This document shows, piece by piece, positions 14,136-57,869 of a stretch of DNA of 64,000 bases (positions within the stretch are counted from its first letter, which is position 1; each line of letters begins with the position of its first letter). This DNA is from Lantana camara (Eukaryota > Streptophyta > Magnoliopsida > Lamiales > Verbenaceae): contig CM074864.1 of NCBI GenBank assembly GCA_037501455.1, forward strand, positions 38,528,001-38,592,000. Reading direction: 5' to 3'. The notes beneath the pieces are model-generated. The model searched no databases. It was not told the origin of the DNA and saw only the letters and a list, made by a program, of their open reading frames with translations. The position numbers and the translations under genes were made by a program.

Positions 14136-14266
14136 GAACTACGCACAGGTATATCCCCGATGGCCTTAACAGTCTCGGGGGCTCCTTACCCATAGCTCCA
14201 TGGAACTACGCACAGGTATATCCCCGACGGCCCTAACCGTCCCGGGGGCTCCTTACCCATAGCTCC
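14136..14266. repeat. 67-bp tandem duplication in N2 LTR
   Basis: Two units start GAACTACGCACAGGTAT at 14136 and 14203; the counterpart is at 20691 and 20758. Each unit contains a hairpin with CCCCGA and CGGGG arms. N1 has a single unit, and N2 inserted into N1 exactly within it. Confidence 0.88.
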
Positions 14267-19624: not shown

Positions 19625-19632
19625 CTTAAGGA

Positions 19633-22600
19633 TGTAACACCCCAAACGGAGGAGTGCCACATCCCCCGCACTGTGACCCAGACCCGATCCATGAAATGGG
19701 AATCCATGTCCGGATCCGAATCAAAGCGAACGGGAGACAAACGCACACGCTATGCTAGGTGGATCTAACTCGACAAACTCAGAGTGCGGAAGCAAATCAA
19801 ACATTTAAACAAGATAGCGGAAGCATTTAAATCAACATTCAAAACAAGTGACGGGTTCAACTAGCATAGATACCTAGTCCCGAATAATAAATCAACATAA
19901 AGTAACAGGTGACGGGTTCAACTAGCATAGATACCTAGTCCCGAATAATAAATCAACATAAAGTAACAGGTGACGGGTTCAACTAACATAGATACCTAGT
20001 CCCGAATAATAACATAAATTAATAATCATCAAGTGCCACAAGGGGCCGAATGAGGGTGCCACAAGGGGCTACCGAATAGTAAAGTATAATCTCAAGTCTA
20101 CAAGTCTTAAGTATAAGTAAAGTGTATGAGAGGACAAATGCAAATAGAAAGACTAGACCGACGAAGTGCAACTCAAAGGACTCACTTCCGTCTAGCAAAC
20201 GCCAACAACCTGCAACTAAAAGTGTAAATGAGGGGTCAGTCAACTTGACCGAGTGAGGGGGCTAACGCACACCCACTGTATATATATATGGAGCATAGCA
20301 CATATCAGAAGGGTGGACTCATGAACCGGAGATAGGTGTTGCATACCAAAGACATTTCCAAAAGTACCCAAAAGATAGTTATAAGTATAAGCTTTAGAAA
20401 ACATTTCAGAAACTCTATCTCGATTCATGATTCCCAGACAGAACAGAACACATTCTCGGCGAGTACGAGCTTCCAACCTTTACTCCCCAGAATATATCAA
20501 ATCATAGAATACAAAAATCAATCCAACCGCTACACCAATGATGGAGGGGATGTGCCGTCCCCAAACCATCTAGAACATACACACCCTCAAGGGGTAGCGA
20601 ACCCACAAGAGTCCTCCCCGGCCTTAGCCGAAGGCTCAAGATACCACGTCTCCCTCATCACCCTAAGGTCGCGCAATGATATCTCAAATGGAACTACGCA
20701 CAGGTATATCCCCGATGGCCTTAACAGTCTCGGGGGCTCCTTACCCATAGCTCCATGGAACTACGCACAGGTATATCCCCGACGGCCCTAACCGTCCCGG
20801 GGGCTCCTTACCCATAGCTCCTCGGATCCACATACAAACATACATACAAACAGATGCCAATATTTCATGGCCAACTCGCTACAGAACATAACGTGACATA
20901 CTTTTCAAAACAGCTTACATATGCTTTCATATCTAATTTTCCAAAACAGAGTTGTTTCACAAGGTCATAAACATATCATAGCCAACACGTACGTATATAA
21001 TAGATATACTCGCATGCAGGGATTAAAAATCATCATATTAAGGCCATAGGTCGCATAACTATACAAAATCCTAAACCTCACCTCGTGAAAGTAGAGTCTG
21101 AGAGTGTGAAGGGCCAAACACTCTAAACCTCGGGCCCACCGGCACCACCAAACTCTGTGACAAGACATACAGAAGCCCAGACTTAGACTCTATATGAACC
21201 AAACAAGACGCATGGCGTTGCTCAACATGATCGTGGTTATGCATAAGTGTTCATGTTGTGCTTGGATAAGGTGTCGTGGTCAATCAAGGCATATCAATGC
21301 TCAACAAGATCATATTTACAAGCAACCGACACGTAATTCCATATCCAAAGATGCACAATCAATTTAGGAAGTCAATGTATTCACAAAATGCATATTAAAT
21401 CATCCAATGTCACAGGGTTCAATTATAATATTAGAATTAAGCATCAAGTTCATGTCGAGTTATAAAGTGCATAAGTAAGAGCAACTTGATCGTATAAACA
21501 TACAAAGTTGTTGTACGTAGATGGCATGCTTGATACAAATAAAGAGTGCATTTAATTCACTTAAGATCATACTTTATAACTTCACAACATGTTTGGTACA
21601 CAAGCTCAAGTCACATACATAGTTTCATAAATATTACACTTACATCCCCTAAGTTATTTATAAAAGTTTAGAATTATTACACATACATCCCCTTAGTTGA
21701 TTACTAAGCATAATTGTTCGTTTAAAGTGTTTATACAATTATTCCACTAGGAATTAATTACTTACAAACATGACAATTATCAATTTATCGTAATTCATAA
21801 TATACTATTTTCAAGTAGTAAGAGTAAATCAAGATATTACAATTCTAACTCGTATCATGCATAAAGTCTCAAGTTGTTCAAGCATCCTTCATGGATCTAA
21901 ATTTAATATTGGAAACACAATTTACAACAAACATAACATTGAGAACGTCTCAAATTTATATAGAGAAATCACAACATGTTCGTTCTTCTAAAATATCATT
22001 CAAGTTCATTTAGTCACAAAAAAGATTAGTTTCTAGATATTACACTAACACCCCTTCGTACTTAACAAATAGCGTAAATTCATCACATCGGGATTCAAAT
22101 TGTAAATCGAAACATTCATGCATATCACAATCCATTCAACACATGTTTTCATATACGATTAGAATACATCTCGATCAACAAACCAACAATAACCAATTTA
22201 TTTGCACTTAAAACAATTAATTCAAATAATCACAATTACGCAAAATAATTCGTAATAAATAGATCGAGTGTCCGATTAACGAACGGAAGGTGGCGTTGAA
22301 CTCACCACAACGAGACGAACATTCTGACCAAACGTTGCCGGAACGCCACCACTGTAGCTGCCGGAATTTGGCCGGACCGCCGCCGAAGGTCGCCGGAAAA
22401 ATCCCGAAAAATCATTCCTGAATGAAGTCTTCGTGCCCGTTCCGAATCCTCAATCAATTTCTGGAAATTCCAAGCCGATTGTCGTAGATCTGAAATCTAA
22501 GAGCACGAAAACCCTAAATCTTCAAACTCAAATTACTTCCAAACCGGTGAACCAAAATGCGATCCGAAAGAGGCGTTGTCTTACCCATGACTAGCTCTTC

Positions 22601-23756
22601 GAAAGCCCTAAGGTAGCTTTCCGGAAAAATCCTCGGAGCTAGTGCCACCGTTGCACCGCCACTTTGCCGCCGCCGATCCGCCGCCAAACCACCGAATCTG
22701 GAGTCGCCTGATCACAGGTCACTAGTTCTCGTCGTTCCGAACAACTTTCGTGAAGAGCTCAAGACCAAAAGATGGCCCGAAAAGGACCCCGTTGGCCGCC
22801 GAAGTTTCTGCCGCCGCCGCTACAGTAACTCGCGCCGCCCAAAGCTGCTCTGATGGCCCCGCCGCCGCCATCAAACAAAGCGCCTGGAAGTCCTCTATCT
22901 GGGCATGGGGCGCGTGCATCAAGGAGGTGGCCGGAAACCACCGCGAAAGGCCGGCGAAGTGGCGGCGGTCCGACACCTCCGCCGCTGCTACTGAAATCCG
23001 GCGATAACTCCGCCACCGTTCGTCGTTAGGCCGTGAAATTGGTACTCTTGCGTCGGTCTCGCCGAGATAATCGAAATGGACTATTCGTTTGTTGAATTCC
23101 ATCGAGAAACGATTGAGTTATGGGCTCGTAACCAGAGCCGCGCATAGTAACCCACGGGAGAGAGAGAGTGGGAGAGGAGAGAGAGAGAGAGAGAGAGAGA
23201 AAAGGGATTGAGAGAAATGTGTCTTGTGCACAAGCTATATACAATCGGGTATCCTTATCGCATAGCAAAGAGACATATCGCGTACAAATAATCGTGAATA
23301 AAATTGGTAAAGTTACGAATAAACATTCAAGCTCCGAATTAATTTTACAAATTAAAATGAAAGAGATAGATTTACCAATTAGGGTTTAATTCAATTTAAT
23401 TTTAGAAACCTTTCGTACAATTTAACGACATTTTGTAAACACATGATTGACAATTAATCTCAAGTAATTCAAGTAAACCGAAATTAAACAAGTTAAGTAA
23501 CATGATGGATTTAAAATCAACTTGACAATTATTTCATGGAATAAATTTGAATTAAATCAAATTAGACAGTTAGGGTTAAATATGCGCGTAATTAATCAAG
23601 TTGACAATTAGTCTTAAAATAATTCGAATGAACACATATTAAATTGGATTTACATTAAATCACATAATTCAAGAACTCTTAAATTAAACACGCACAAGTG
23701 TAGAGACTTACTTGTAAATGTCGTCAGGATGCCTTTCGAGAATACGGGGCGTCACA
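19633..23756 (-). repeat. N2 5' LTR
   Basis: 4124 bp, partner of 13079-17223. Sense features: TATATA 23241-23236, exon-1 donor GT 22305-22304, exon-2 donor GT 21081-21080, acceptor AG 20211-20210. Both inverted arms carry one C-to-T change (19753-19763, 20187-20197). Compared with the partner LTR it shows a 16-bp inverted segment plus a deletion at 22831-22846. Confidence 0.94.
22722..23102 (-). CDS. Small open frame in exon-1 region of N2 LTR (doubtful)
   Basis: 126 codons from an ATG just downstream of the predicted promoter. The first part (MEFNKRIVHFDYLGET, then SRPNDERWRSYRRIS and RHFAGLSRWFPA) aligns with a frame at the same place in S1 (29534-29806) and more loosely with M near 9050. 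It has no recognised domain and ends in Ala/Gly-rich sequence. In the partner LTR the start is ACG, and M also has ACG there, so the ATG may be a chance CpG change. It could be a leader peptide, or only conserved leader RNA. Confidence 0.3.
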   Translation of the reverse strand: MEFNKRIVHFDYLGETDARVPISRPNDERWRSYRRISVAAAEVSDRRHFAGLSRWFPATSLMHAPHAQIEDFQALCLMAAAGPSEQLWAARVTVAAAAETSAANGVLFGPSFGLELFTKVVRNDEN

Positions 23757-23761
23757 GGTAT

Positions 23762-26700
23762 ATCCCCGACGGCCCTAACCGTCCCGGGGGCTCCTTACCC
23801 ACAGCTCCTCTGATCCACATACATACATACATACATACTGATGCCAATATTTCATGGCCAACTTGCTACATAATCACAACACAACTGTTTTTCCAAAATA
23901 GCTTACATATGCTTCAAAAACTGGTTTTTATATATATTCCTACGCTGCAGGGATAGCCCGCCCACGCAGGACTCACACACTTACATTCCCACGCTGCAGG
24001 GATTGCCAGCCCGGGAAGAAGTGCAAGCATAAGATCATAAAAATATCATATTCAACACATACATAACTATTGTAAGGTATACTCGCATGCAGGGGTAGAA
24101 ATCAGCATGTAAAGGTCATAGGTCGCATAACTATACAAAATCCTAAACCTCACCTTATGCAAGTAGAGTCTGAGAGTGTGAGGGCCAAACAATCTAAACC
24201 TCGGGCCCACCGGCACCACCAAACTCTGTGACAAGACATACAGAAGCCCAGACTTAGACTCTATATGAACCAAACAAGACGCACGGCATTGCTCAACATG
24301 ATCGTGGTTATGCATAAGTGTTCATGTTGTGCTTGGATGAGGTGTCGTGGTCATTCAAGGCATATCAATGCTCAACAAGGTCATATTTACAAGCAACCAT
24401 CATGCAATTCCATATCCAAAGATGCAAGATCAATTTAGGAAGTCAATGTATTCACAAAATGCATATTAAATCATCCAATGTCACAGGGTTCAATTATAAT
24501 GTTAGAATTAAGCATCAAGTTCATGTCGAGTTATAAAGTGCATAAGTAAGAGCAACTTGGTCATATAAACATACAAAGTTATTGTACGTAGATGGCATGC
24601 TTGATACAAATAAAGAGTGCATTTAATTCACTTAAGATCATACTTTACAACTTCACAACATGTTTGGTACACAAGCTCAAGTCACATTCATAGTTTCATA
24701 AATATTACACTTACATCCCCTAAGTTATTTATAAAAGTTTAGAATTATTACACATACATCCCCTTAGTTGATTACTAAGCATAATTGTTCGTTTAAAGTG
24801 TTTATATAATTATTCAACTAGGAATTAATTACTTACAAACATGACAATTATCAATTTATCGTAATTCATAATATACCATCTTCGAGTAGTGAGAGTAAAT
24901 CAAAATATTACAATTCTAACTCCTATCATGCATCAAGTCTCAAGTTGTTCAAGCATCTTTCATGTATCTAAATTTATATTTGAAACACAATTTACAACAA
25001 ACATAACATTGAGAACGTCTCAAATTCATATAGAGAAATCACAACATGTTCGTTCTTCTAAAATATCATTCAAGTTCATTTAGTCACATAAAAGATTAGT
25101 TTCTAAATATTACACTAACATCCCTTCATATCTAAACACATAGCATAAATTCATCACATCGGGATTCAAATTGTAAATCAAAATACTCATGCATATCACA
25201 ATTCATTCAATACATATTTTTGTATATGATTGGAATATATTTCGATCAATCAAACCAACAATAACCAATTTATTTGCACTTAAAACAATTAATTCAAATA
25301 ATCACAATTACGCAAAATAATTCGTAATAAATAGATCGAGTGTCCGATTAACGAACGGAAAGTGGCGTTGAACTCACCACAACGAGAAGAACATTCCGAC
25401 CAGACGCCGCCGGAAGGCCACCACTGTAGCTGCCGGAATTTGGCCGGGCCGCCGCCGAAGGCCGCCGGAAAAATCCTGAAAAATCAGTCCTGAATGAAGT
25501 CTTCGTGCCTGTTCCGAATCCTCGATCAATTTCTGGAAATTCCAAGCCGATTGTCCTAGATCTGAAATCTAAGAACACGAAAACCCTAAATCTTCAAACT
25601 CGAATTAGTTCCAAACCGGTGAACCAAAATGTGATCCGAAAGAAGCATCGGCTTACCCATGACGAGCTCTTCGAAAGCCCTAAGGTAGCTCGCTGGAAAA
25701 ATCCTCGGAGCTAGTGCCGCCGTTGCACCGCCACTTTGCCGCCGCGATCCGCCGCCAAACCACCGAATCTGGAGTCGCCTGATCACAAGCTACTAGTTCT
25801 TGCCGTTCTGAACAACTTTCGTGAGGAGCCTAAGGCCAAAAGATAGCCGGAAAAGGCCCCCGTTGACCGCCGAACAATCTGCCACCTCACGCGTCGTCGG
25901 AACCACCACCTACGGTCAAGATCTGGTGAAATTGATGCCGGAAATGAACTCAAGGGGTCGAAAAACCTTGGAAACCATCAAGCCCCGTCAAAAACCACTA
26001 TCGGAAGGCGGCGAAACCCGCCGCTACAGTAACTCGTGCCGCCGCCGCGAGCTTTGGGCGGCGCATGCGGCGCCGTCTCTGCTCTGATGGCCTCGTCGCC
26101 GACGTTAAACGAAGCACCTGGAAGTCTACTTTCTGGGCATGGGGCGCGTGCATCAAGAAGATGGCCGGAAACCGCCGCGAAGGCCGGCAAAGTGGCGGCG
26201 GTCTGACAGCTCCGCCGCTGCTACTGAAATCTGTCGATAACTCCACCACCGTTCATTGTTAGGCCATGAAATTGGTACTCTTGCATACGTCTCGCCGAGA
26301 TAATCGAAATGGACTATTCGTTTGTTGAATTCCATCGAGAAACGATCGAGTTAAGGGCTCGTAACCAAAGCCGCGAATAGTACCCGCGGGAGAGAGAGTG
26401 GGAGAGGAGAGAGAGAAAGGAGATTGGGAGAAATGTGTCTTGTACACAAGCTATATACAACCGGGTATCCTTATCGCGTAGCAAAGAGTAATATCGCGTA
26501 CAAATAATCGTAAATAAAATTGGTAAAGTTACGAATAAACATTCAAGCTCCGAATTAATTTTATAAATTAAAATGAAAGAGATAGATTTACCCATTAGAG
26601 TTTAATTCAATTTAATTTTAGAAACCTTTCGTATAATTTAACGACACTTCGTAACCACATGATTGATAATTAATCTCAAGGAATTCAAGTAAACCGAAAT

Positions 26701-26893
26701 TAAACAAGTTAAGTAACATGATGGATTTAAAATCAACTTAACCATTAATTTTAGAATAATCCGAATGATCACATATTAAATTGGATTTATATTAAATCAC
26801 ATAATTCAAGAACTCTTAAATTAAACACACACAAGTGTAGAGACTTACTTGTTAATATCGTCAGGACGCCCTTCGAGAATACGGGGCGTCACA
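23762..26893 (-). repeat. N1 solo LTR, 5' portion (sense)
   Basis: This is the larger part of N1 after the N2 insertion. It has about 150 bp (25865-26020) that N2's LTRs lack but S1 shares, so that part is ancestral. A shorter version of the exon-1 open frame is at 26335-26153, starting MEFNKRIVHFDYLGET and ending early. Confidence 0.9.
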
Positions 26894-26898
26894 TTTTG

Positions 26899-27089: not shown

Positions 27090-27102
27090 TGGTATCAGAG
27101 CC
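27090..27102 (+). other. M primer-binding site
   Basis: TGGTATCAGAGCC, an exact match to the initiator tRNA-Met complement, eight bases after the LTR. Confidence 0.95.
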
Positions 27103-29097
27103 GCCAGGTTCAGAACCGGTGCTCTGGAGTCGTGTCGTGTTAGTTTAGGTCGGACGACATAGGAATACTTGTGCATTGCATTCGTCTGATGTGAAATTTT
27201 GACTTCTCTGCATGAATTTGTTTGAGCTTATGTGATTGTGTGCACACTATGATTACGATTTTTTCAAAATTATCACTGTTATGCTTTAAATTTTATTAAA
27301 TTACGTACTGCATCTGCATTACTTAAGTGTTCTTAATTGCTTTTATTACTTCACATATCCACGTACTAACCCGCATGCATAGATATTTATTCAATTTGTG
27401 AATTGCAGGGTGACATCTCGACGCTAAATTGTAAATGATCGTGACAATTCTTCCCACTTCTACAAATTTTTGACAAGAGATTCAAAGCAGCCATACTCTA
27501 ATGAGAGACAATGGACCTCTACAAGAATTCGAAACAAGGAATCAATGCTATCATTATGAAAACGGGTATTATGCATTCATAGCACGTGCATCATGCATTG
27601 GATTAAACTGTAAATTAAATTTAAATCTTTGTCCTACGTGATTGATTGTCTTCCTTGCTGATTAATGAGTGTATGTCATTCACATCCCTAACCCCACATG
27701 CATGAGCTTCGTGGTTGTAATTTAGGTGTTCCCCTACCTGATCCACTAAGTGCTGTCTTGATCGAAGCAACATTGGGATTCGAACCGGGGTTGACCAGAA
27801 GATGTATGATCGAGCTACACAATCAGGGTATTGGGTGGATACAAGGAAGATATTTGTATATGAGGGAGACAAGAGATCTTTTAACTATCAAGGTGCTTTC
27901 AGGATATATACTCTACATATTTGGGGGTGCTCAGGAGTAACATGCTTTATAAAGATATCAAAATTTCTAACTCTGGATAACATGAGGTAGCAATGAAGAA
28001 ATCGAGGCATTTGTACCATTTAGAGTCATATAAGAGGTCAGACTATTTTAAAGACATCAGCAAGAATGGTTACACTTATACTAAGGAAAAGGGGGAAATT
28101 ATATAAAATAAGGAATTTTGTGGCAATGTTTTTGAAGGCCAACTCTACCAAATGATGAGAATGGGAGCAGTAGTTAAAACGACGGTAGCAAAGTGGGATT
28201 GATTAAAGATTCTCCATTGATTCCTTCAAGAACGTTCTAAGAGACCTTACCATTGATAGAGATAGCAAATTCCGATTCTCGAGAATTTTATCTGGATTTC
28301 AGGAGACCCTGTGGATCACTTTGTTCTGAGAACCAATTGAAATGGTTCGAGACCTTTTTGAACCCAAAGGATTCAAGGAAATACCAAAGAATGCAACTTT
28401 GAATATGGATTTGGAACTACGGCCAGATAAGGATTTGATTAGTCCCTCAAGTTAAAGAATTGTCAACCTCGAATCCACTACTACGGTGAACGGTACATTG
28501 AGCATTCATGGCATTTGCACCCATGCATTTCATAAGTAATTATATTTTATTTTATTTTATTTTGCTTGATGTGCGTGACGACGTGTAATGCGTGATGCTG
28601 CCTTGACTGTAATAACGTGGTTAATTAATTTAATTTCCATAACTTGAGATTTATTATGGTTGTGAATTCTTGTAAACTGAATGGATTACATGCTTTCGTG
28701 AACTGTTCATGCTTCAGTGTTTATAGTTTCCTTAATGGCTCACTAACCCTTCGTGCACATACATACATATTGTAATTTTATCTTACAGTGATCCCATCGC
28801 GATATCCCCCTCGAGATGAGCATGGATGATGAGTCTATACCTTAGGGACACCTATATCAGTTGTGTAAAGGTACACTATACATGCATCTCATGTTTGGCA
28901 TCAAGTGTTACTTTGATGTGTGTATTTAGAATGCTGAGTAAGTGAACTTATGTGCTAGAGAGTTGTCGAGATCTCTCTCTATTTACGTGTTAGGGAGATG
29001 TGGGATTCTTCCTATTTATGTGATAGAAAGATGTTGGATTCTTTCTAAATTATGTGAGCAAAAGATGCTGCATTCTCTTGGAGTTAGATATTTGGGA
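27103..29097 (+). other. M internal domain, 5' part (non-coding)
   Basis: About 2 kb without any recognisable retroviral protein. It holds a GTCGGACGAC-like block at 27149-27158, a stretch homologous to N2 (28790-28890) and the first part of the hairpin array (28955-29097). The 75-codon frame at 27698-27940 has no family resemblance that I can see. S1 interrupts the array. Confidence 0.8.
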
Positions 29098-32000
29098 TGT
29101 AACATCCCGCTCGTCTGATTTATAAGGTACGCCACGTTTCAACCTTTTAATGTATTTAATTATGTGATTTTATATTTTTCGTGGCCCTATTTTGAACTCT
29201 TTTAGAGTTTAGGGGCCCCTTTGTAATTTTCTCTTTTTAGGGGTTTTTCGGTCATTTATCGTTCGAAAGAGATTTTGACCATTTTGACCCATTCTTCACG
29301 TTCGGGGCATCGAGACGAGTCCGTAGACTCTAAGTTTGCCCAATTCTGGCGTCGTTTGCCCCTTCTACCGTTCGTTTTTCGTGAGAGGACCCTGGATAAA
29401 ACACCCGGATCCTCGTTTAAGGTGTCATAACTCAGCAGCTCTCTCTCTCTCTCCCCCGCCAGACAGAACACTACACACACACACACACTCGAAGGTGTAT
29501 TTTCACACACAACTCAAACTTGCCCGTTTCTATATGGATTTCGACGAACCACTAGTCCATTTCGACGAGCTCGACGACACGGTCACAACCGTACCAAGAT
29601 CTCGACCAAACGATGACCGACGACGGAGATATCGGCCATTTTCAGGCGCAGATGGAGAGAGGTGGTGGAGCCGCCACTTCGCCGCCCTTCCGCGGTGCCT
29701 TCCGGCGATACGCGCCCCACAGCCGGCAAGAGGAGGTCCCGGCGCATCGAATGACGTTGGCGGTGCGGCCAGTAACAGTTGGATGGCGGCGCGTGCCGCC
29801 GCGTGAACAGTGTCACGGCGGCGCTCCGGCGCCCTTTTTCGACGAAGGTTAGTGTTTTCCAAGGTTTTCCGACCTCCTGAGTCCATTTCCGGCATCGTTT
29901 TCACTGAATTTTGGTTGTAGGTGGTGGTTCCGGGGAGGCGTGCGGCGGCAGAAACTTCGGAGCCCAACGGGGCCCTTTTCCGGCCATCTTTTGGCCTCGG
30001 GCCCTTCACGAAAGTTGTTCGGAATGACGAGAACTAGTGGCCTTTGATCACACGACTGCTGATTCGGCCAATTGGCTGCGGATCACGGCGGCACAGTGGC
30101 GGTGCAACTGCGGCACCACCTCCGGGGATTTTTCCGGCGAGAAAGCTTAGGGCTTTCATAAAGCTCGTCACGGGTAAGCCGATGCCTCTTTCGGATCTCA
30201 TTTTGGTTCACCAGTTTGAAAGTAATTGAAGTTTGAAGATTTTAGGGTTTTCGTGTTCTTGGATTTTAAATTGGAGACAATTGGCTTGGAATTTGCAGAA
30301 ATTGATCGAGGAATTAGATTGAGCACGACGAATCCTTACATGGGTGGTTTTTTGGGATTTTTCCGGCACGCTCTAGCGGCGGCCGAGCTGCGGCCCGCCA
30401 CTGTTCCGGCGGCTCCGGTGGCGGCGATCAGGCGGGCTTCGGACAGAATGTCCGTCTCGTTATGGTGAGTCCGTTGCCGCTTTCCGTTCGTTAATCGGAC
30501 ACTCGGTTTATTTTCTACGTATTTATTTGTGTATTTGGGACATATTTAAATTAATTATTTAAATGAGAATTAATTGTTATATGTTTGAATTGTCGATCGA
30601 AAGGTACTCCTATGTGTATGAAATCATTTATGATATGGAATGTGATAAGTATGGACTTTGTAATTTGTAAATTGAACCCCGATTTATTGAATTTATGCTA
30701 ATTGATTAAATTAGAGGGGGTGTTTGTGTAATTTTGAAACAGGATGAAATTGTTTGATTTGATTTGTTCAACCTTGCTAAGTGAATCCGTTTTGTAACAT
30801 ATGATTTGGGTATGTCACGTAGGAATTATATGAACTTAGTATGATTGGGATTTAATAGGTAACCTCGTGAGATTTATATAAATTTCGAAGCATGCTATTA
30901 CGATTTGTTTAGCTGTGTAATACGTGCAAATTTGTATGAAATATAATATGTGAACTTGCGTGATTTGAATTAATTTAACTTTAATTTTTCACTTGGTAAA
31001 TAAATATATTAATCTCGATGTGTTAAAGAAATTATTATGTCTAACATTGAACTTTAAATTAAGGTTTAATCACGTAAATTGGAATTTAATCTATTATGTA
31101 ATATTTGTGAATTTGTTATGCATCGGAAAATTATATGAGAACTTGAATAATTATGTAACTTAGTTGGAAGTTGCTTATGACCCCGTGGATTTAAATGAAT
31201 TCGTAGCATGTTACTACATGATTTATTTGGCCTTGTAATACGTGCAAGTTTATGAAATGTTATATATGAATTTGATTTGATTGCTTTGTAAATGTGCAAT
31301 ATATGAATTGATACGAGATAATGTGGTTGCATTTGCCGTGCGTCTCTGTGTGGTTGTCTGTCTGAGTCTGAGCTTTGTGGTCTGTTTTGTGTGTTCAGTG
31401 GATCAGGTGCACCCGAGGTGGTGACAAGTGAGTCGTGCAGGTTTCGGGGTGGACCTTCTGCTTTGTGTTCGGCTGTGTTTGGTACCAGGTGAGGTTAGGA
31501 TATAGTTATACCGTATTACAACGTGCTGGTTTTTGAATGCATGCGGTTTATAAGCCTTATGTATATGTAGATATGTGCGAAGTACGTATTTTGTTGGTTT
31601 TGTCATATGATTTGATTTGAAAATACGAAACGCTATGTATGAGCCTATGTATGCTTTATCTCAGTTCTGTTATGATTCCGAGGTCAGTGTGTGTGATATG
31701 TACGTGTGATATATGCATGAGATATGTATGTATCTGTGTGTGGCAAGTTAAGTTTCCGATATATGTCTATTTATTTGTGTGATGGGCCCCGGAGATTGTG
31801 GGTAAGGGAGACCCGGGACGACCATGGGGTCGCCGGTTATGACCCCTGTTCACTTCTCCACCAACGGGAGACTAGTTCTCCTATGCCGACGGAGCGCATT
31901 TTGGCATGGCCATTGAAGGAACTGGGCGGGATCCTCCGGTTCACATGTTTAGTTCTATGGTGGGTTGAGAGGGGCACCTCTCTTCCCCAATGGTGTGCAG

Positions 32001-32959
32001 GTGGGATTGTTTTATGAGTTTTGTTTTGATATGAATCAGTGTGTTATGTCTGTCCGTCTGTCATAAGTTCGTGAAACGGGGGTAGGTTCTTAAATTAAGA
32101 TAAAAATTGATATACCTTTAAGCTAATAAGATATGCTCCGATATGTGTGTTAAGTCTGCATGAATCTGAGCTATGCCTTAAGAAACTTTTGATTTAAGAT
32201 TTGTTTGGTCTGTTTGATAAGTCTCCCTATATGTATAGTGTCACGGAAATGTTTTGGCGTGCAAAAACTAACCCCGGGTTCACGAACGTCGCTTCTTCTT
32301 TGTGCTGTGCTCTATATATATGTATAGTGTGCGTGTGTCAGCCCCTCGCTCAGTCTTTGGACTGACCCCTCCCCTTTTATGTTTTAGTTCGCAGGCTTTG
32401 CTTTGAAGGTCGTTGGAGTTCGTGCTAGGCGGCTGTGTGTCGGGTCTGTCGAGTCTGTGTCTGTCTGTTTAAGTTTATTAAGTTCTGGCTCTGGTTTACG
32501 ATTTGTAAATGTTATATAAGATATGTTTGTGCAGGTTTGCATTTATGATTTGAATTTATGGAATTCGGGACAGGTTAGGACAGGTGCTCGGATTAGTTGA
32601 ACCCGTTGTGAATATATGATTGCTCGGGACAGGTTAGGACAGGTTTGCTGGATTAGTCGAACTCGTTTAGTTGATTTTGATGTTTGTATGGTACTGTATG
32701 TTTAAGGTATGAAAGTTTTTTAAAGTTGGCATTTCGTACTACTTCCGCTGTCATGTTTTGCATTCTTTCATTCGTACAGGGTTAGATACCGCCTAGCTAG
32801 TGGGTGTGTTTTTCGTTAGTCACCCGTTCGCTGTGACTTGGGTGTGTTTTTCGTTAGTCACCCGTTCGTTGTGACTTGGTGCATGTGCGGACTCTTCATT
32901 TCGTACACGTGTCGGGTCATAGTGCGGGGGTGTGATGCCCCACCGCTTGGGGTGTTACA
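29098..32959 (+). mobile_element. S1: solo LTR inside M
   Basis: TGTAACATCCC to GGGGTGTTACA, 3862 bp, flanked by TGGGA on both sides (29093-29097, 32960-32964). It is a relative of the M LTR, clearly diverged. It shows the LTR plan without interruption: CT-rich tract near 29438, exon-1 donor GT 30465-30466 (ATG then GTGAGTCC), acceptor AG 31397-31398, exon 2 31399-31488, donor GT 31489 (CCAG then GTGAGG), CAGTC/GACTG hairpin 32351-32364, acceptor AG 32393-32394, arms 32424-32432 and 32789-32797. No internal region remains. Confidence 0.95.
29534..29806 (+). CDS. Small open frame in exon-1 region of S1 (doubtful)
   Basis: 90 codons from an ATG about 90 bp after the CT tract. The start MDFDEPLVHFDELDDT and the later SRPNDDRRRRYR and RHFAALPRCLPA parallel the frame at 22722-23102. 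Several differences in the aligned part are at third codon positions, which hints at coding constraint, but the sample is small. No known domain, Ala/Arg-rich end. It could equally be a conserved untranslated leader. Confidence 0.3.
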   Translation: MDFDEPLVHFDELDDTVTTVPRSRPNDDRRRRYRPFSGADGERWWSRHFAALPRCLPAIRAPQPARGGPGASNDVGGAASNSWMAARAAA

Positions 32960-33511: not shown

Positions 33512-36030
33512 TGTAACACCCCGCTCGTCCTACAAATAAGGTACGCCACATTTCAACTTCCTTGTGTGTTTAATTCGTTCATTTTGTGCTTTGCATGACC
33601 CTATTTTGAACTCTTTTAGAGTTTGGGGGCTTGTTTGTAATTTTCTCTTTTTAGGGGTTTTACGGTCATTTGTCGTTCGGTCGAGAGTTCGACCTTTTTG
33701 ACCCCTGCTTCGCGTTCGGGGCAGCGAAACGAGTCCACAGACTCTAAGTTTACCCATTTCTGGCGTCGTTAACCCCTTCTTTCGATCGTTTTCGCGTACG
33801 AGGACCCGAGATATAATACATGGATCCTCGTAATTCGTGCCAAGCGCAGCAGACCTCAGCTTGCTCTCTTCTCTCTCCCGCTCCAGATATGCACATGCAG
33901 TGAAGGTGTGAAAACACGCACAACTCCAAACTCGATCTATACTCGACGGAATTTGACGAACCAATAGTCCATTTCGAAGAGGTCGACTAGCCCGACATGA
34001 TGATACAAGTTTCATGGCCCGAAAATGTCCGACGGCGGCGCAGTGGTGGTCTGAAGGTGGCGGGTTACGCCACCTCATCGCCGGCGACAATCCGGCGAGC
34101 TTCGCCGGCCAACACCACCCTACCCCCATGGTTTCCGACCCGCTGGTGACGATTTCGGCCTCGATTTACCACGAAAACCACCGGAAATAGAGTTTTCCGG
34201 CAGCAGCAGTGCGGCGGCGTTTGGTGGCGGGTTTGGTGCTCCGATCATTGTCCGGCGACGGGATTTGAGGGGAAAGACACAGGACAACGAGCTGAGTCGA
34301 TTGAGGTCAGTCCCGCCACCTAAAATTCTTCGGAGCGGCGGCAGAGCAGCAGTGGTGGCGCGACGGTGCTTCGCGGCGGCGGCCATCTCCGTTGACTTTT
34401 TTCGGCGAACAACATAGGGGTTTCAAAGAGCACTTCAGGGGGTTTCGTATTCTTGGATTTGAAATTGGAGACGATTGGCTTGGAATTTGCAGAAATTGGT
34501 TGAGGAATTGGAACGAGCACGAGGAATACTTGCACGAGTGAATTTTGGGGATTTTTCCGGCACGCTCCGGTGGCGGTCGAGCGGCGGCCCACCACTGTTC
34601 CAGCGGGCTCCGAACAGTTTGTCCGCCTCGTTGTGGTGAGTCCAACGCCACTTCCCATTCTTCAATCGGACACTGGGTTTATTTGTTACGAATTTATTTG
34701 TGTATTTGAGACATATTTGATTTAATTGTTTTAATGCGAATTAATGGCCATATGCTTGAATTGTCGATCGGAATGAATTCCAATGAATATGAAATCAGGT
34801 ATTAAATGAAATGTGATATGAATTCATGCTTTGAATTGTGAATTGAACCCCCGTTATGCCGAATTGTATTAGTTGTTAATTGTTTTAAAATGTAATTCGC
34901 TTTTGTATGCTCGATAAATTGATGAATATGCATTGTATGGTATTTGGAAATATGTAATGAATGATAAATGTATGATTTCATGATTGTTGTTGATATTAGT
35001 TTCGTTTCATGCCATTAGATATAATATAGCCCTGGTAGAAGGGGTGTTTGTGTAATTTTAGAAAATGTAAATTTGTATAACTTGAATTAATTGAACATTA
35101 TCATTTGAAAACGATTATGCTAATTTTGATGATGTAAAAGTTGCTTTATTATGCCTTGGATAATTAAATTTGAGATTTTTGCAATTAACGTTTAATTACC
35201 TAAATTGAATTTGAATTTATGATGCAATGTATGAATTGTATGAACTTTGAATGATTAAATGGCTTAGTCGGAATTTGGTATGTAACCCCATGGGTCTAAA
35301 TTAATTCGTCTCATACTATTATATGATTCAATTAGCCTTGTAATATGTGGATTTTGTATGAAATGTGAAATATGACTTCAGTTGAAATTTATTATTTGAT
35401 AAAAGAATTTGTTATGCAATTTAGGATTTAGCAAGAATTGAATTAGTATGTCTTGGATGAGTTAATTTGAAACTTTGTAATTTAGGTTTAATTATTTAAT
35501 TTAAAATAAATCTATTATGCGATATGTGAACTGTATAAAACTTGTATGATTAAATTAGGAACTTTTGAACGTAAGAAATAAGTTATTAGTACGAATATGA
35601 ATTGGTTATTTGATATATGAATTTATATGAAATAAGGTGACATGCATTGCCTTTCCATTTTGTTTATTTGAATTAATTGTGCATAAGAACATCTTTGGAA
35701 GTGTTTTATGAATATGTTGACTTATGTGATATTTTATTTTGCAAGTAATTAGTATGATTATGAACTTTGCTTATGTGATTGCCTTTCTTAAGTACTTGAG
35801 CATGTGCCGTGCGTCTTTATATGGTTGTCTGAGTCTGAGTTTGAGTTCTGTACTGTGTTTGGTGTGTTCAGCTGGGACAGGTGCACCCGGGGTAGTGACT
35901 TGTGGTCGTGCAGGTTCCGGGGTGGACCATTTGCTTTGGGTTTGGCTTTGTCTGGTACCAGATGAGGGTGTTTTTGTTCTAGTTACATACTAAACCCTAC
36001 AACCTTATGTGACAAATTTGGCTAAAATCT

Positions 36031-36104
<74 letters not shown>

Positions 36105-37400
36105 ATTTTCAAGTTGAGTCATCGAGTAAATTATTATCGAGTAACCTTTTCTCCAAAATTATGGAATATGTTATGTATCTTATGAATTCAAATATTTTGG
36201 TGAGATTATGTGTGTTTGTTATGATTGCACGGGCCCAGGGACTTAGTGCAAGTGGCTATCCGTGGAGGCAAGGACCGACGGTGATCCCTTGTACTAGTCC
36301 CACCACATTTACGGTGATACCGACCCTCGCTAGGAGGTTTAGCGGGGAATGGGAGCTGAGTGCCCTTGGGGGATTCTTGTACCCCCATTGGCCTATGTAT
36401 GGACCGGTGGTAGGGTCTTGCTAACCCGTCCACCGCCCGGAGGAAGAAGGTTGGAACTGATTTTATGATTATGATTATGTTATGATTGTTATGCACCGTG
36501 CGGGAAGGCCGGGACACTGATTACCCAAACGACTATGTCTTATCTTATGTTATATGACTTGTGTGTATTATAATATATTGCATGATCACGTATTCAATGT
36601 ATTAATGATATTTGTCGTACACGGTCGGAGTTTGGTTGGAGACTGTGCACGCTCACTCGTCGAGCCTTATTGATTTTGTATGAATTATGAACTTAATGAA
36701 TTTTATATGATCAGTCGTAAAGTCCGAGCATTGCTTAGTTATTCTCTTGCCCTCTTGGGAACTAACTTTAAATAAAACCTTGCTCGGGATTTATGACTTG
36801 CATGCGCATGTTTCTATATTTATGTATCGCCCCTGCTCACTCAGTCTTCTAGAGACTGACCCCTCTTCCTCACTTTTCAGTTCTTGCAGGTTTGAGCTAG
36901 GCGGCTGTCAGTGTCTGTTGAGTCTGTATCTGTTTGTTTATGTTGTTAGGTGCGTTGCTTCAGTTTATGTTTGAAGTCTTGTTTATGTAAGTTGTGTCAG
37001 TCCGTCTGAGTCTGTCGTGTATTTTGTTTCAATTTATGGTAACATTATTTATGATATGGTTCTGCACAGGTTTATAATTATGATTCGAATGTATGAATTT
37101 CGGGACAGGTTAGGACAGGTACTCGGTTTAGTTGAACCTGTTTAGTTGATGTTGATTTACTTTTTGAAATATATGGATTATGATTGCTGATTAAAGTTTT
37201 GAGAATTCGTATTTTGTATCGCTTCCGCATTCAGGTTTGGCATATTTTCACTTGTACAGGGTTTAGGTACCGCCTAGCTTAGGTTGGTTTTTCGTTTGTC
37301 ACCCGTTCGCTGTGGCTTGGTGTGTGTGCGGACTTTCCATTTTGTACACCTGTCGGGTCATAGTGCGGGGGTGTGGTGCCCCACCGCTTGGGGTGCTACA
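33512..37400 (+). repeat. M 3' LTR
   Basis: 3889 bp, complete. TATA-like 33812-33818; exon-1 donor GT 34636-34637 (GTG then GTGAGTCC); exon 2 starts 35872; its donor is mutated here (CCAGATGAGG, 35957-35966; the 5' LTR has CCAGGTGAGG); hairpin 36325-36347; acceptor AG 36888-36889; arms 36895-36904 and 37270-37279 (10 bp, perfect). It differs from the 5' LTR by a (TA)n expansion and by keeping about 90 bp lost there. The 199-codon minus-strand frame (33530-34129) is antisense and broken in the partner LTR. Confidence 0.95.
36032..36101. repeat. (TA)n microsatellite, about 70 bp
   Basis: Pure TA run in the M 3' LTR, with about 35 bp of extra sequence to its right. The matching position in the 5' LTR (near 11055) has only TATGTAT, so the run expanded or was gained after insertion. 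Confidence 0.97.
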
Positions 37401-37405
37401 ATACA

Positions 37406-39705
37406 TATATTAGTTTTGGTCAAAAGCTTTACACTTTGAAGGTAGATAGGGTCATTTAGCTAGATAGTAGAGAAACCCACCTGTACAACTCTTACCGAAC
37501 AATACCAGAAGAAAAGGAGACTCGTGAGTGTCCTATGAACCCGACAAGTCTCCGCCCTGGAGAAACTGTACAAGAAACAATATAACGTGTTTGTGAGACT
37601 CAAGACACCAAATGAACCATATATGACGCACAACAATGAAATGATCATGATATAAATGTATAAAAGATCATATTATGTAATGAACACGTTCATGTGCACT
37701 ATTAATGTCTTAAGGACATACAAACATTCATTCCATTCCTTTCATGAAGCGTTTAAAGCCGTTCATGTTCATAACCTTCACATTTAAATCAAATTGATCC
37801 AAGAATTTCAAATACCGATCATAAAACATAGTATAACATGTTTACAATTAGGAAATAGGTAAATAGAAACATTCAAGTCATATTCGGAAATTAAATAACA
37901 TGAAATAGATAACAATTAAATTCTAAAATTTAAATAAATTAAACAAAGCTTTAAATAAATATACAAAATCATATCTATGTATATTTATATATATAGGTGT
38001 ACGTAAACATTCATGCAATTTAGAATAAAATGAAACAATTATTCATGAAATCAAACATGTTCAACATTAACATGCATTTAATAACAAAATAATGAAATGA
38101 ATACTTGTTCATGCAAACCTATGAATATACAGATGTGGCTATGCATGCATGCAAAGATGGGGAATTAGAAAACAAAATTAAACCATGCAAATGAGTTTTA
38201 AAAACTGAAAATTTTCCAGAAAGAGCAGGGGTCGCGGCCGCGACCCATTTTCTTCATGAAATGGTAGCGGCCGCTACCCTATTTTTCAACAATTTTCCTC
38301 CAATTTTTACTGAATACGTGAGCAGCCCAAAAACCAGTCGCGGTCGCGACATGAAATACGTGCATTTAAGGTCGCGGGCGCTACCCTGGGCAACGCAGCA
38401 AAATAACACAGCAAACTGGATGAAAACAGAGCAGCAACAAATTTAATCTTCAACCAACAAGTTCAGATGTTAATATGCAGCAAAAGAGCAATATTTCAAT
38501 CCCAATTTGACACCCAAACTTGCAGCCAAGGTCATCAAACGTGAGCAAGGAAATTATAAGATCAATTCATGCTATTTCTTCAAAATTTCATTAATGGCTA
38601 CTCATGAATGCTTCAACTACCATGTAATACATCACCATAAATGCAAAGAAGGAGTCACGACAATCATATTCGTGCTTCGAATCAACCAAAACCTTCAAGG
38701 AATCAAAGAGATCAACATATAATACCATAACCTAACTATTTCATCTCCTTCTCCAAAAACTCATGAAAGCAAGCTCAAAATTAGGGATGAATGGATCAAA
38801 ATGACTCATAATGAATGTATAATACAACCCTAAGCTTACCTTGTGGATTGGATGAAGTTTGGAGGAGATTTGAGCTTGAATCTCCAAGGTTGACAAGAGC
38901 TATGGGATTTTCTGGAACAGGGGATTTTTGGCTGAATTTCTCCAAGTGATGAGGGTTGGTTTGGTTCGGGGGGTTACGATCAGGTAGGGGGTTGAGTTAG
39001 GGTTCCAAGGGCTCAAACCATGGTTAATTTGGTCAAGGTTTGAATGTGATATGGCTCTTTTGGCAATAGGTGGCAATTTTGGCTTCTGTTGCATGTTTCG
39101 GTTGATTTTCGGAGGTTCAAATAACTTTGGAAAAATATAAGGCTAAGTTCATTGAACTCGAATTTTCATTGCGAGTTCAGCGAAGTTGACGAAACTCGCC
39201 GAGTTTCCTAGCTCAAGATATCACATAAGGAACTAATGGTGCGCTAATTGCTCGTTAGCCCCCATTTTGGATTCCAAAATCAAAATAAATTCGAAACTCA
39301 TGCAAACGAACCCGAAACATGAAGCTAACACATATTCATATTCATAACACGTATATCTCCGACATATTAAATTTTCACGAAATTTCGGTATCAAATCATA
39401 TAAAAACGAAGCACGTTTATAAAACTCATGAGCGATGTATTTAAAAATCCATAACATTTCCGAATAAATAACAAAAATTAAACTCATTTGTTTAAATATA
39501 AACCAAAGTGCACTAATTAAATATACTTTAAAATCAAAGTGCACGAATTAATTTAATTCTAATATTAATAAACTTAAAATATAAATAATTAACATTTTAA
39601 TATTTAATATAAAATTAAACATACAAAACACTTATAAACAATTAATTCGCGTAATTTGGTAAACACATACGTCATACAAGAATATAAAAAAGTTGGGGCG
39701 TTACA
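37406..39705 (-). repeat. G1 5' LTR, segment 2 (5' portion in sense)
   Basis: It resumes directly after M's target duplication and ends GGGGCGTTACA at 39705, parallel to LTR R (55740-57864). Sense features: exon-1 donor GT 38839-38838 (CAAG then GTAAGC), acceptor AG 37567-37566, exon 2 37565-37481, donor GT 37480-37479 (ACAG then GTGGGTTTC). Total LTR length without M is about 3.4 kb. Palindromes are at 38229-38384. Confidence 0.9.
38229..38384. repeat. Palindrome cluster in G1 LTR
   Basis: Perfect palindromes GGGTCGCGGCCGCGACCC (38229-38246) and GGTAGCGGCCGCTACC (38263-38278), then GTCGCG-GT-CGCGAC (38337-38350) and an imperfect GGTCGCGGGCGCTACC (38370-38385). They lie in the predicted first intron. 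Confidence 0.9.
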
Positions 39706-42748: not shown

Positions 42749-43411
42749 TTAAAGTTTCTTTTGGGACACGGGTCTCTTGCTCGAACTCGAACTCGATCCT
42801 TGTCCCACATAAGAGGTGTGAGACTCCAACCGTTGGTTATCCATTTTCTCTTGAACCCCCTTTCTTACATCCTCGGACCATTTATACATCGACATGGTTT
42901 GAAAAGCTTGTTGAATTTCATCTCTATGACCTTGTATATAATTCCGGGCGTTAGGGCAATCTTTTTCAGCTTCCGATCTCTCAAGTTCCAATATGAGATC
43001 ATCCATCATCTTCAACTCTTGTTCGAGATCCAAAAATTCTCGAAGTTTTCTTACCATCACACTTGGGGAAATGTATTTGTAGCAAAATTCTCAGATGAAA
43101 TTCTCCCAAGTGAATTCTTCTTCGGACATCTCCAATCTCGATCTAATTTGCTTGAGCCATTTTGAAGCTCAGCCTTGAAGTAAACGGGAAGTGCAATTTA
43201 CCTTTTCTAGTGAGGTCCCCGGACAATTTTTCCAAATCCATATCACCTCAGACAACCATTCTTCGGCCTTGATATCATCCCCTCCAAACCACTTCGGCGG
43301 ATCAAAATCTTTAAACTTCTTGTAGACCGAAGTCACTTGCTTTTCTTGTCCTTCCTTTGATAATGCATGTTGAGGTTGAGATTTCATCCTGAAATAAGGA
43401 AACAATTCCAA
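42749..43411 (-). pseudogene. P gag remnant
   Basis: Two frames (43411-43169 and 43060-42749) carry gypsy gag features: FKDFDPPKWFGGDDIKAEEW at the N-terminus matches the start of the retrotransposon gag domain, and FLDLEQELKMMDDLILELE corresponds to the LREFLDL region in T. The spacing requires a frameshift between them. An acceptor-like TTATTTCAG sits just before the ATG of MKSQPQHAL. This was the capsid protein. Confidence 0.78.
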
Positions 43412-46600: not shown

Positions 46601-46848
46601 ATATAATTCATGCATATCAAGTAATCACAAAAATTGGAAACGAGTACGGGGTCAAACGGATTAAAACGAGGCAAATAGGGGTAAAATGTTCAAAAATCCA
46701 AACACATAGTTAACGAATAATTCAAATAACTTCAAGAATATCATTTAAACAATATAAGAAACATACAATTGCATAAATAAATAATTTAAAAGTGCAATTG
46801 ACACTTCATAACGACATACCTGTACGGCCTGACGAGCGGGGTGTTACA
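43605..46848 (-). repeat. P 5' LTR
   Basis: 3244 bp, TGTAGCACCCC to GGGGTGTTACA. The next five bases, CTTCT, would be the target duplication; the partner is not visible. Sense features: exon-1 donor GT 46108-46107 (GAG then GTAAGT), acceptor AG 45002-45001, exon 2 45000-44928, donor GT 44927-44926 (CAAG then GTGAGG), acceptor AG 44029-44028, arms 43728-43736 and 44006-44014 (one change). Palindromes near 45490-45660 are decayed. Confidence 0.92.
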
Positions 46849-53960: not shown

Positions 53961-53966
53961 TATAAA
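53961..53966 (+). promoter_or_regulatory. Predicted TATA box of T
   Basis: TATAAA 400 bp into the LTR, followed by a C/T-rich start-like region near 53990. No longer has a functional product to express. Confidence 0.55.
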
Positions 53967-57864: not shown

Positions 57865-57869
57865 TATTC

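What the first reader, a model, noticed from the sequence alone, without database searches (positions are those of the whole stretch)
29098..32959. Conserved two-intron splice layout inside diverged chromovirus-type LTRs
Seen directly: at matching places the LTRs carry (a) a donor after exon 1: S1 30465, M3' 34636, T 54159, and minus-strand N1 25377, N2 15747 and 22305, G1 38839, R 57088, P 46108, Q 50382; (b) a pyrimidine-rich acceptor opening a 66-90 nt segment: W 1283-1349, M 10898-10987, S1 31399-31488, T 58023-58097, minus N2 14599-14527, G1 37565-37481, R 55887-55822, P 45000-44928, Q 49304-49229; (c) a donor of the form AG then GTGRG at its end in all but T (weak) and M3' (mutated); (d) 720-910 nt later an acceptor ending CAG/TAG. 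The surrounding sequence is far more diverged than these sites. Inference: the LTR (R-U5) encodes a three-exon leader. Reverse transcription copies U5 into both LTRs, so packaged RNA must stay unspliced; splicing would serve mRNA only, as in retroviruses. I do not know of this described for Tekay-like elements.
Basis: partly seen in the sequence, partly recalled or inferred. Interest (0 to 1): 0.88.

Follow-up and report, generated by a model that had tools for sequence, protein, structure and literature searches.

The report
Spliced leader introns inside retrotransposon LTRs
A group of jumping genes in what looks like a plant genome carries introns inside its long terminal repeats, and the genome holds copies from which the first intron is cut out exactly, showing that such RNAs really are spliced, while the second intron was kept in every such copy read.

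Summary
Across diverged LTR families, donor 1, a 60-90 nt exon 2 (YAG...AG|GTGRG) and a strong third acceptor are conserved while flanks are near random (donor-2 core 0.90, rest 0.37). In 20 copies from the next 200 kb, donor 2 is intact in 18 and acceptor 3 found in 19. A further acceptor lies one base before an ATG at the gag start in 7 of 12 elements read. Decisive: the genome has 21 (M-type) and 9 (N-type) places where exon 1 joins exon 2 at the predicted sites. All 14 read lack intron 1 and keep donor 2 with intron 2 following; a tree needs six state changes. No exon-2 exit junction was found, against 394 unspliced exact matches. Intron 2 also holds a covarying 220-nt RNA structure. Best reading: intron 1 is a leader intron; intron 2 must stay in genomic RNA, while splicing to the gag start gives mRNA without the primer-binding site. 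Intron-2 splicing is inferred. 'Tekay' was not confirmed.

The parts
29098..32959 (+). S1 solo LTR (TG...CA) nested in the internal region of M
   Evidence: TGTAACATCCCGCTCG start and GGGGTGTTACA end
30465..31398 (+). S1 intron 1: donor ATG|GTGAGTCC to acceptor TTCAG; T 0.41, GC 0.30, 33 ATG
   Evidence: exact loss of this intron in the related genomic copy L047
31399..31488 (+). S1 exon 2, 90 nt, no ATG
31489..32394 (+). S1 intron 2: donor CAG|GTGAGG to acceptor 3 TTCGCAG|G (top-scoring acceptor of this LTR)
31784..32000 (+). S1 counterpart of the structured intron-2 RNA block
   Evidence: CM hit E 8e-06; covariation in the small S1/N2/P group
32351..32365 (+). hairpin CAGTC..GACTG with branch-point-like CTGA at its 3' side
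   Evidence: 12 of 12 window copies keep all 6 pairs
32424..32432 (+). GCTAGGCGG, left arm of long-range stem, just after acceptor 3
32789..32797 (+). CCGCCTAGC, right arm of long-range stem
   Evidence: compensatory pair in copy c190k
8618..12145 (+). M 5' LTR, first piece (rest 26893-27082); exon 2 10898-10987, acceptor 3 at 11818; donor 1 lost in a deletion
33512..37400 (+). M 3' LTR; donor 1 at 34636, exon 2 35872-35961 with donor 2 mutated to ATGAGG, acceptor 3 at 36890
27090..27101 (+). M primer-binding site TGGTATCAGAGC
27409..27412 (+). M gag-site acceptor gaattgcag|GGTG (no ATG there)
   Evidence: top acceptor after the PBS
11159..11385 (+). structured RNA block in intron 2 of M5 (also 36231-36457 in M3)
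   Evidence: 16 of 60 pairs with two-sided change, 0 of 500 shuffles
13079..17223 (-). N2 3' LTR (N2a): donor 1 15747, exon 2 14599-14527, acceptor 3 13654
   Evidence: N-type exon1|exon2 joined copies elsewhere
19633..23756 (-). N2 5' LTR (N2b): donor 1 22305, exon 2 21154-21082, acceptor 3 20209; internal region 19632-17224 with gag-site acceptor 19332
23757..26893 (-). N1 solo LTR, first piece (rest 13078-12146): donor 1 25377, donor 2 24153, acceptor 3 12589
37401..39705 (-). G1 LTR, first piece (rest 8617-7516): donor 1 38839, exon 2 37565-37481, acceptor 3 7969, block 8512-8290
43605..46848 (-). P 5' LTR: donor 1 46108, exon 2 45000-44928, acceptor 3 44033
43387..43388 (-). P gag-start acceptor tatttcag|G then ATG at 43387; best acceptor between donor 2 and gag
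   Evidence: P ORF resembles T gag, E 3e-06
48000..50946 (-). Q LTR (end about 48000, not sharply seen): donor 1 50382, exon 2 49304-49229, acceptor 3 48404
54743..57864 (-). R solo LTR nested in the T 5' LTR: donor 1 57088, exon 2 55887-55822, acceptor 3 55100, block 55640-55420
53560..54742 (+). T 5' LTR, first piece (rest 57865-59181): TATA-like about 53960, donor 1 54159
58023..58097 (+). T exon 2; donor 2 AT|GTGAGG here, CAG|GTGAGG in the T 3' LTR
59382..59385 (+). T gag-start acceptor atattacag|A then ATG at 59383
   Evidence: gag and pol domains downstream
1283..1349 (+). W exon 2; acceptor 3 at 2093, block 1534-1755, LTR end about 2480

Best explanation
The LTRs carry a conserved leader-splicing programme. 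Transcription from the LTR promoter gives an RNA whose R-U5 holds exon 1, intron 1 (0.9-1.3 kb, U-rich, full of AUGs), a 60-90 nt exon 2, and then intron 2. Step 1, shown: intron 1 is spliced, because exactly intron-1-less LTRs exist, which had to pass through a spliced RNA that was reverse transcribed. Step 2, shown as a pattern: intron 2 is kept in every such copy read. Step 3, inferred: for translation, the exon-2 donor is joined to an acceptor one base before the gag AUG (or to acceptor 3 in U5). Joining to gag removes dozens of upstream AUGs, the structured block, U5 and the PBS, giving an mRNA that cannot be reverse transcribed. RNA that keeps intron 2 is poorly translatable and becomes the genome. 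Step 4, inferred: the hairpin against the acceptor-3 branch point tempers splicing, and the covarying 220-nt intron-2 RNA is the best candidate for a signal needed in genomic RNA (packaging, dimerisation or export). Families without a recognisable gag keep the signals, as would be expected if the cis parts serve replication.
For: Intron 1: 21 places with M-type exon1|exon2 joined (1 exact, 12 with one, 8 with two mismatches; reversed control 0) and 9 N-type places (4 exact; control 0). I read 14 of these 30; all 14 join the two exons at the predicted bases and keep donor 2 AG|GTGAG. In the 11 M/S1-type copies intron 2 follows (acceptor 3 seen in 9 of 11); the 3 N-type copies were seen only to about 110 nt past donor 2. 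N-type hits lie in pairs and a triplet 5.19-5.29 kb apart, as expected if both LTRs were copied from one spliced RNA. The tree needs 6 state changes, starred branches force 3, and 0 of 200 bootstrap trees make the intron-less copies one group.

Intron 2 kept: exon2|exon3 M/S1-type 0 exact, M-type 0 at up to 2 mismatches, N-type 0 at up to 3, S1-type one hit at 3 mismatches whose letters fit the unspliced acceptor, so 0; exon2|gag M-type 0; unspliced exon2|intron2 394 exact, control 0.

Signals. gag-start acceptor. AUG density: exon 1 last 150 nt 7 in 1050, exon 2 4 in 695, intron 1 302 in 7985, intron 2 198 in 5790. RNA structure: 16 of 60 and 18 of 48 pairs with two-sided changes, 0 of 500 shuffles each; G-U cells 24 against A-C cells 10.
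Against: No RNA reads were available, so splicing of intron 2 is not shown at all, and the absence of intron-2-less LTRs would also follow if donor 2 were never used. The intron-2 junction patterns rest on exon-3 starts whose variation I did not measure, so their sensitivity may be below that of the intron-1 patterns; only M, S1 and N types were tried. Exon 3 up to the LTR end is not AUG-poor (84 in 3502 nt), so an exon1-exon2-exon3 leader would be a bad mRNA leader; this is why I favour the gag acceptor. In c122k, c113k and c118k the gag-start acceptor is only the fourth-best nearby; in G1 it scores 5.9 and the ATG is not adjacent. Folding-energy z-scores of the block are unremarkable (-2.1 to +0.25 over ten copies). 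Both consensus structures were derived from the alignments they were counted on, the second on only four sequences, two of them near-identical; the antisense fold also exceeds shuffles (13 of 52 pairs). The model of the block did not find the P copy and gave N2 only E 0.13. Acceptor 2 does not stand out by exact identity. Three forced tree changes could in principle be one loss and two regains. Splice weight matrices were written from memory.
Confidence: 0.8

Rival explanations
1. Intron 2 is kept only because donor 2 is rarely or never used; only intron 1 is a working intron, and the exon-2 donor and later acceptors are remnants or serve other RNA-binding roles.
For: No intron-2-less copy in five genome searches.
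Against: Donor 2 is among the most conserved GT contexts and intact in 29 of 32 copies (one search prints 28; c99k corrected by eye). Acceptor 3 is the top-scoring acceptor in 9 of 12 window LTRs. Unused sites should have drifted as the exon did.
Confidence: 0.15
2. Acceptor 3 starts a terminal exon: transcripts go exon 1 - exon 2 - exon 3 and are polyadenylated in the T-rich 250-420 nt between GCTAGGCGG and CCGCCTAGC. The LTR is then a self-contained three-exon unit, and splicing to gag competes with termination in the 5' LTR.
For: The segment is T-rich (0.40-0.44) and GC-poor between two GC-rich flanks in ten copies; acceptor 3 is very strong and conserved.
Against: I did not locate a polyadenylation site (none was searched for by a tool); no donor is conserved in exon 3.
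Confidence: 0.3
3. The intron-2 RNA block is a packaging or dimerisation signal, and this alone explains why intron 2 is kept; splicing to gag is incidental.
For: Covariation in two alignment groups; 83% mean column identity over six copies while exon 2 hardly aligns; kept in families without a recognisable gag.
Against: Function untested; energy z-scores weak; an export, translation or DNA-level role is not excluded.
Confidence: 0.35
4. The matches are chance or shared ancestry without function, and the intron-1-less copies are ordinary deletions.
For: The families share ancestry, and anchoring inflates core identity.
Against: Deletions would not end at the predicted GT and AG in two sequence types and in several branches of the tree. 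Out-of-window copies repeat the layout.
Confidence: 0.03

Closest known systems
BARE1/BARE2 (barley Ty1/copia), distinct RNA pools (PMC3735527, abstract and passages read)
   Same: Separate RNAs for translation and for reverse transcription; translated RNA cannot be copied; a partner that makes no Gag produces replication RNA.
   Different: BARE separates pools by promoter choice and splices near the end of gag; here the introns lie in the LTR leader and the one classified element (T) is Ty3/gypsy.
Ogre and EVADE introns (as described in PMC12786077 and PMC6317226, passages read)
   Same: Functional introns in plant LTR retrotransposons.
   Different: Those introns lie between or within coding regions, not in the LTR.
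Sunflower Tyran and Varan isoforms (PMC7730604, abstract and passages read)
   Same: Spliced isoforms of plant LTR elements seen in direct RNA reads, one with two introns.
   Different: Described for isoforms encoding truncated Gag; no conserved LTR leader layout in the passages I saw.
Diaspora of soybean (PMC1142308, passages read)
   Same: Donors predicted in the LTR and acceptors flanking the gag start; the authors noted the long leader.
   Different: Prediction in one family with relevance stated as unknown; it says no intron upstream of gag was reported for any LTR element. Here: many families, conservation, and spliced genomic copies.
L1 SpIREs (PMC5860796, abstract and passages read)
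   Same: Spliced leader RNA reverse transcribed and left as intron-less genomic copies.
   Different: SpIREs are described as mostly dead ends with lost promoter parts; here some intron-1-less LTRs come in pairs and related groups, so some may have replicated again (inferred).
Retroviral leader (major splice donor, packaging signal; recalled; review PMC9143442, passages read)
   Same: A signal in an intron so that only unspliced RNA is packaged.
   Different: Here two introns and an extra leader exon lie inside the LTR, so they are copied at both ends of the element.
CaMV and RTBV pregenomic RNA leader (PMC5902531, passages read)
   Same: Structured leader with many upstream ORFs, splice donor, primer site and packaging signal.
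   Different: Those viruses use ribosome shunting past the leader; no LTR.

Membership tests
LTR retrotransposon | TG...CA LTRs, PBS after the 5' LTR, polypurine tract before the 3' LTR | tested here: met
   e.g. M 8618-...-27082, PBS 27090, purine-rich tract then 3' LTR 33512-37400; N2, P likewise
Ty3/gypsy | gag, protease, RT, RNase H, then integrase | tested here: met
   T only, in decayed pieces: Retrotrans_gag, RVP_2, RVT_1, RT_RNaseH, Integrase_H2C2, then rve (below its own cut-off), in that order
chromovirus clade Tekay | chromodomain at the integrase C terminus | tested here: not met
   No Pfam chromodomain in the stop-free piece 63387-63731, which gives SH3_Tf2-1; the next stretch is broken and was not read through
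chromovirus clade Tekay | grouping with Tekay in a polyprotein tree | not tested
   No reference set of plant elements was searched
LARD-type non-autonomous element | long LTRs, PBS, internal region without coding domains | tested here: inconclusive
   N2 and M: LTRs about 3.9-4.1 kb, internal 2.4-2.6 kb, no Pfam domain in the three pieces scanned (2 of N2, 1 of M); shorter pieces were not scanned. P is not a case: it has a gag remnant
spliced retrotransposon leader | intron removed exactly at GT...AG in a product | tested here: met
   intron 1 only:
spliced retrotransposon leader | junction reads in RNA | not testable with these tools
   no RNA data
retrovirus-like packaging control | cis signal confined to unspliced RNA and needed for packaging | tested here: inconclusive
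   structured block lies in intron 2, and intron 2 was kept in the copies read; packaging not tested

The most novel reading that the evidence does not exclude
One LTR-encoded splice choice decides the fate of every transcript across many families: joining exon 2 to the base before the gag AUG strips out U5, the primer-binding site and a packaging structure and so makes a translation-only mRNA, while retaining intron 2 makes a replication-only genome. Gag-less parasite families keep the same switch to be packaged.
Probability: 0.45. Interest if true: 0.9.

Novelty: new variant of a known kind. Interest (0 to 1): 0.82.

Why it matters
How retrotransposons divide one transcript between translation and replication is an open question. 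Here a conserved splice programme in the LTR itself offers a concrete answer, and the genome keeps products: intron-1-less copies exist, intron-2-less copies were not found with the patterns tried. It could explain very long LTRs and leaders crowded with upstream AUGs, gives a possible reason why gag-less derivatives keep large LTRs, and gives an exact junction set to look for in long-read RNA data.

Tried and rejected
A third donor (GGTTAG before CCGCCTAGC) pairing with the gag acceptor: absent from several copies (P, c20k, c31k, c65k, c122k, c190k), rejected. A coding function of exon 2: lengths do not keep one frame, not pursued. Recursive splicing at acceptor 3 (CAG|GT): kept only as a thought. 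Minimum-energy z-scores as proof of structure: weak (windows), so I rely on covariation. Spliced junctions inside the window: of 15 joined 44-nt probes one (Q exon 2|3) gave a spanning hit, which is the unspliced acceptor itself, whose last bases resemble the end of exon 2. Copies in viral and prokaryote collections: 4 and 7 hits of an 18-base pattern, taken as chance; one search looked for the paired motif at 100-130 nt, shorter than the real 230-420, so it is no test. A pol search found nothing. Rfam: no hit at gathering scores. P gag piece in the protein collection: no homologue. Four 10-kb samples from other chromosomes held no GCTAGGCGG or GTTAGGCGG, and three exon-2-like patterns in one of them were not followed; yet the 40 scored M-type exon-2 hits lie on contigs C1-C11. 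Literature on LTR or pre-gag introns: searches (listings), and passages of ten papers; nothing describing this was seen. Only open-licence papers are held.

Errors of mine: one search used a wrong donor 1 for M5 (deleted there) and an M3 exon 2 off by 6 nt; one search recounts intron 1 without M5 but keeps the 6-nt-off M3 end. In one search the anchors of M3 and c99k were off; 29 of 32 is the printed 28 with c99k corrected by eye. In one search several exon borders were corrected by eye (c24k, c31k, c65k, c99k, c109k, c118k, c126k, c190k, c20k).
Full report
What the window holds. It is a stack of nested LTR elements. M (8618-37400) has LTRs of about 3.9 kb and an internal region of about 2.6 kb that holds the S1 solo LTR; N2 (13079-23756) sits in the N1 solo LTR, which sits in the M 5' LTR; M sits in the G1 LTR; R sits in the T 5' LTR. 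T is the one with Ty3/gypsy gag and pol domains, broken by stops. P has a gag remnant resembling T gag (E 3e-06 over 38 residues). In N2 and M no coding domain was found in the three pieces scanned. The window lies in G000, contig C10, of a 1.27-Gb genome without name; that it is a plant is my inference.

All listed donors and exon-2 borders are as stated. Scored with a recalled plant matrix, donor 2 ranks 1-4 among 181-328 GT in 8 of the 9 LTRs where it was ranked (10 of 161 in T). Acceptor 3 is the top acceptor of the LTR in 9 of 12 and second or third in two (M5, P); T5 lacks it. Around the sites the families hardly align: identity of the splice core is 0.81-0.93, against 0.33-0.38 elsewhere in the anchored windows. 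Because anchoring favours the core, I compared 941 GT contexts matched across families; 13 of the top 15 are donor 2 or the TGAGTCTCA block upstream of acceptor 2. Acceptor 2 itself does not stand out (ranks 21-236 of 462). The pattern YAG-60..95-AGGTGRG is in 8 of 9 families sense, 1 of 9 antisense, and in a mean of 1.07 of 9 after shuffling.

Independent copies. I took the next 200 kb of the chromosome, searched it with window exon-2 regions as probes (35 hit clusters, which I took as 20 copies) and read those 20. Donor 2 AG|GTGRG is intact in 18 (c65k and c109k have single-base changes), the acceptor is YAG in 19 (T3 is not), and the exon is about 60-90 nt; several belong to families not in the window (some borders set by eye). 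An acceptor before GCTAGGCGG is found in 19 (c99k gave none); the hairpin matches in 16 by the strict pattern, and by eye is kept with G-U pairs in c190k and broken in T3 and c20k. Eight more acceptor-3 sites in the block lie in copies that the exon-2 probes did not find, and their exon 2 was not examined.

Composition. Introns are U-rich and AUG-rich, exons 1 and 2 are not: exon 1 (last 150 nt of seven copies) 7 AUG in 1050, exon 2 (nine copies) 4 in 695, intron 1 (seven) 302 in 7985, intron 2 (seven) 198 in 5790. Against a simple three-exon leader, exon 3 has 84 AUG in 3502 nt.

A further acceptor at gag. After the PBS the best acceptor in 5 of 5 elements examined in the window is P tcag|GATG, T acag|AATG, N2 tcag|GGTG, M gcag|GGTG, G1 atag|GTTATG. 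In T the ATG starts gag by Pfam, and in P by likeness to T. Between donor 2 and gag it ranks 1 of 86 in P, 2 of 56 in T and 2 of 89 in N2, the other top site in P and N2 being acceptor 3; in G1 it ranks 3 of 91. Outside, of seven copies with a PBS, five have YAG|RATG (c42k, c20k and the related c122k, c113k, c118k, where it is only fourth by score), c82k has YAG|GGTG and c11k YAG|GGGC; their reading frames were not tested for gag. So YAG|RATG stands in 7 of 12 elements read. Joining donor 2 to it would remove 24-50 AUGs, U5 and the PBS in P, T and N2.

RNA structure. Intron 2 holds a GC-rich block of about 220 nt. In six copies 16 of 60 consensus pairs show two-sided change, more than any of 500 shuffles, and slides destroy it. 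The S1/N2/P group, aligned apart (four sequences, two near-identical), gives 18 of 48. Both structures were derived from the alignments they were counted on. The sense fold has a favourable covariation term (-1.54) and the antisense fold does not (+1.18), although the antisense also beats shuffles; G-U outnumber A-C cells 24 to 10. Folding energies are not unusual for the composition. A model of the block finds the S1 copy at E 8e-06, N2 copies at 0.13, Q at 0.35 and not P. Just before acceptor 3 a hairpin CAGTC..GACTG runs into a branch-point-like CTGA (CTGG in Q); 12 of 12 window copies keep all six pairs with U-A, A-U and U-G variants. GCTAGGCGG after acceptor 3 and CCGCCTAGC near the LTR end are complementary; the first occurs 66 times on both strands in 264 kb against 0.57 expected, and copy c190k carries a compensating change, T3 and c93k keep the stem with G-U, and c113k breaks it. 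In the window three of ten copies have one mismatch, and N2b, not in that count, is changed on both arms without compensation.

Decisive test. If an LTR RNA is spliced and reverse transcribed, intron-less LTRs must exist. Searching the genome for exon 1 joined to exon 2 gave 21 places for the M type and 9 for the N type, with reversed controls at 0. I read 11 of the 21 and 3 of the 9: all 14 are joined at the predicted bases and all 14 keep donor 2. In the 11, intron 2 sequence follows and acceptor 3 was seen in 9 (not in L037 and L041); the 3 N-type copies were seen to about 110 nt past donor 2. The 11 are scattered among intron-bearing relatives in a tree that needs 6 state changes and is forced to at least 3; as exact regain of an intron is unlikely, I read this as several losses. 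N-type hits are spaced 5.19-5.29 kb apart in two pairs and a triplet, near the 5.4 kb expected when both LTRs of an N2-like element lack intron 1 (my arithmetic from N2). By contrast exon 2 joined to exon 3 or to gag was not found: 0 (exact), 0 (up to 2 mismatches), 0, 0 (up to 3), and one hit whose letters fit the unspliced acceptor (not fetched). Unspliced exon 2 plus intron 2 has 394 exact matches. Only M, S1 and N patterns were tried, and how far exon-3 starts vary was not measured.

Meaning. Shown: intron 1 is a real intron, and RNAs lacking it can be reverse transcribed. Shown as a pattern: no LTR lacking intron 2 was found. Inferred: either intron-2 splicing takes out something needed for replication (the PBS if the gag-start acceptor is used, the structured block in either case), or it does not happen. 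Conservation of donor 2, acceptor 3 and the gag-start acceptor argues for the former. I therefore propose a splice switch between mRNA and genomic RNA, with about 0.45 probability for the full version.

Comparison. BARE keeps separate RNA pools by promoter choice and splicing near the end of gag (PMC3735527, abstract and passages). Ogre and EVADE have coding-region introns (PMC12786077, PMC6317226, passages), and sunflower elements have spliced isoforms (PMC7730604, abstract and passages). Diaspora had predicted LTR donors and gag-flanking acceptors, with the statement that no intron upstream of gag was known (PMC1142308, passages). L1 SpIREs are the closest parallel to the intron-1-less copies (PMC5860796, abstract and passages). 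I saw no report of this in ten searches of the open library, which does not cover most subscription journals.

Noticed in passing
LTR position about 29-45: 8647, 33541, 29127, 57834-, 46819-, 50915-, 53589 and others: A donor-like site, mostly AG|GTAYG, lies 29-45 nt into the U3 of 12 of 13 LTR starts (G1 has only a weak one; N2a and T3 are weaker), and is the best-scoring donor of the LTR in 6 of 12; role unknown.
   Followed up: partly
2852-4819 (-): Fragments of a Ty1/copia element (Retrotran_gag_2, zinc knuckle, Pol_BBD, integrase core) in separate open pieces.
   Followed up: no
52339-52752: Two 198-bp direct repeats, 91% alike, with a PBS-like TGGTATCAGAGC at 52552 on the minus strand; may be a small TRIM-like element.
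   Followed up: no
neighbouring block (L013-L032), about 135-181 kb into it: A run of LTR copies with GCTAGGCGG, partly at 4.4-kb spacing, whose exon 2 was not found by the probes.
   Followed up: no
33060-33200 (+): Repeated gagagacggggttctctc-like motif in the M internal region upstream of the 3' LTR.
   Followed up: no
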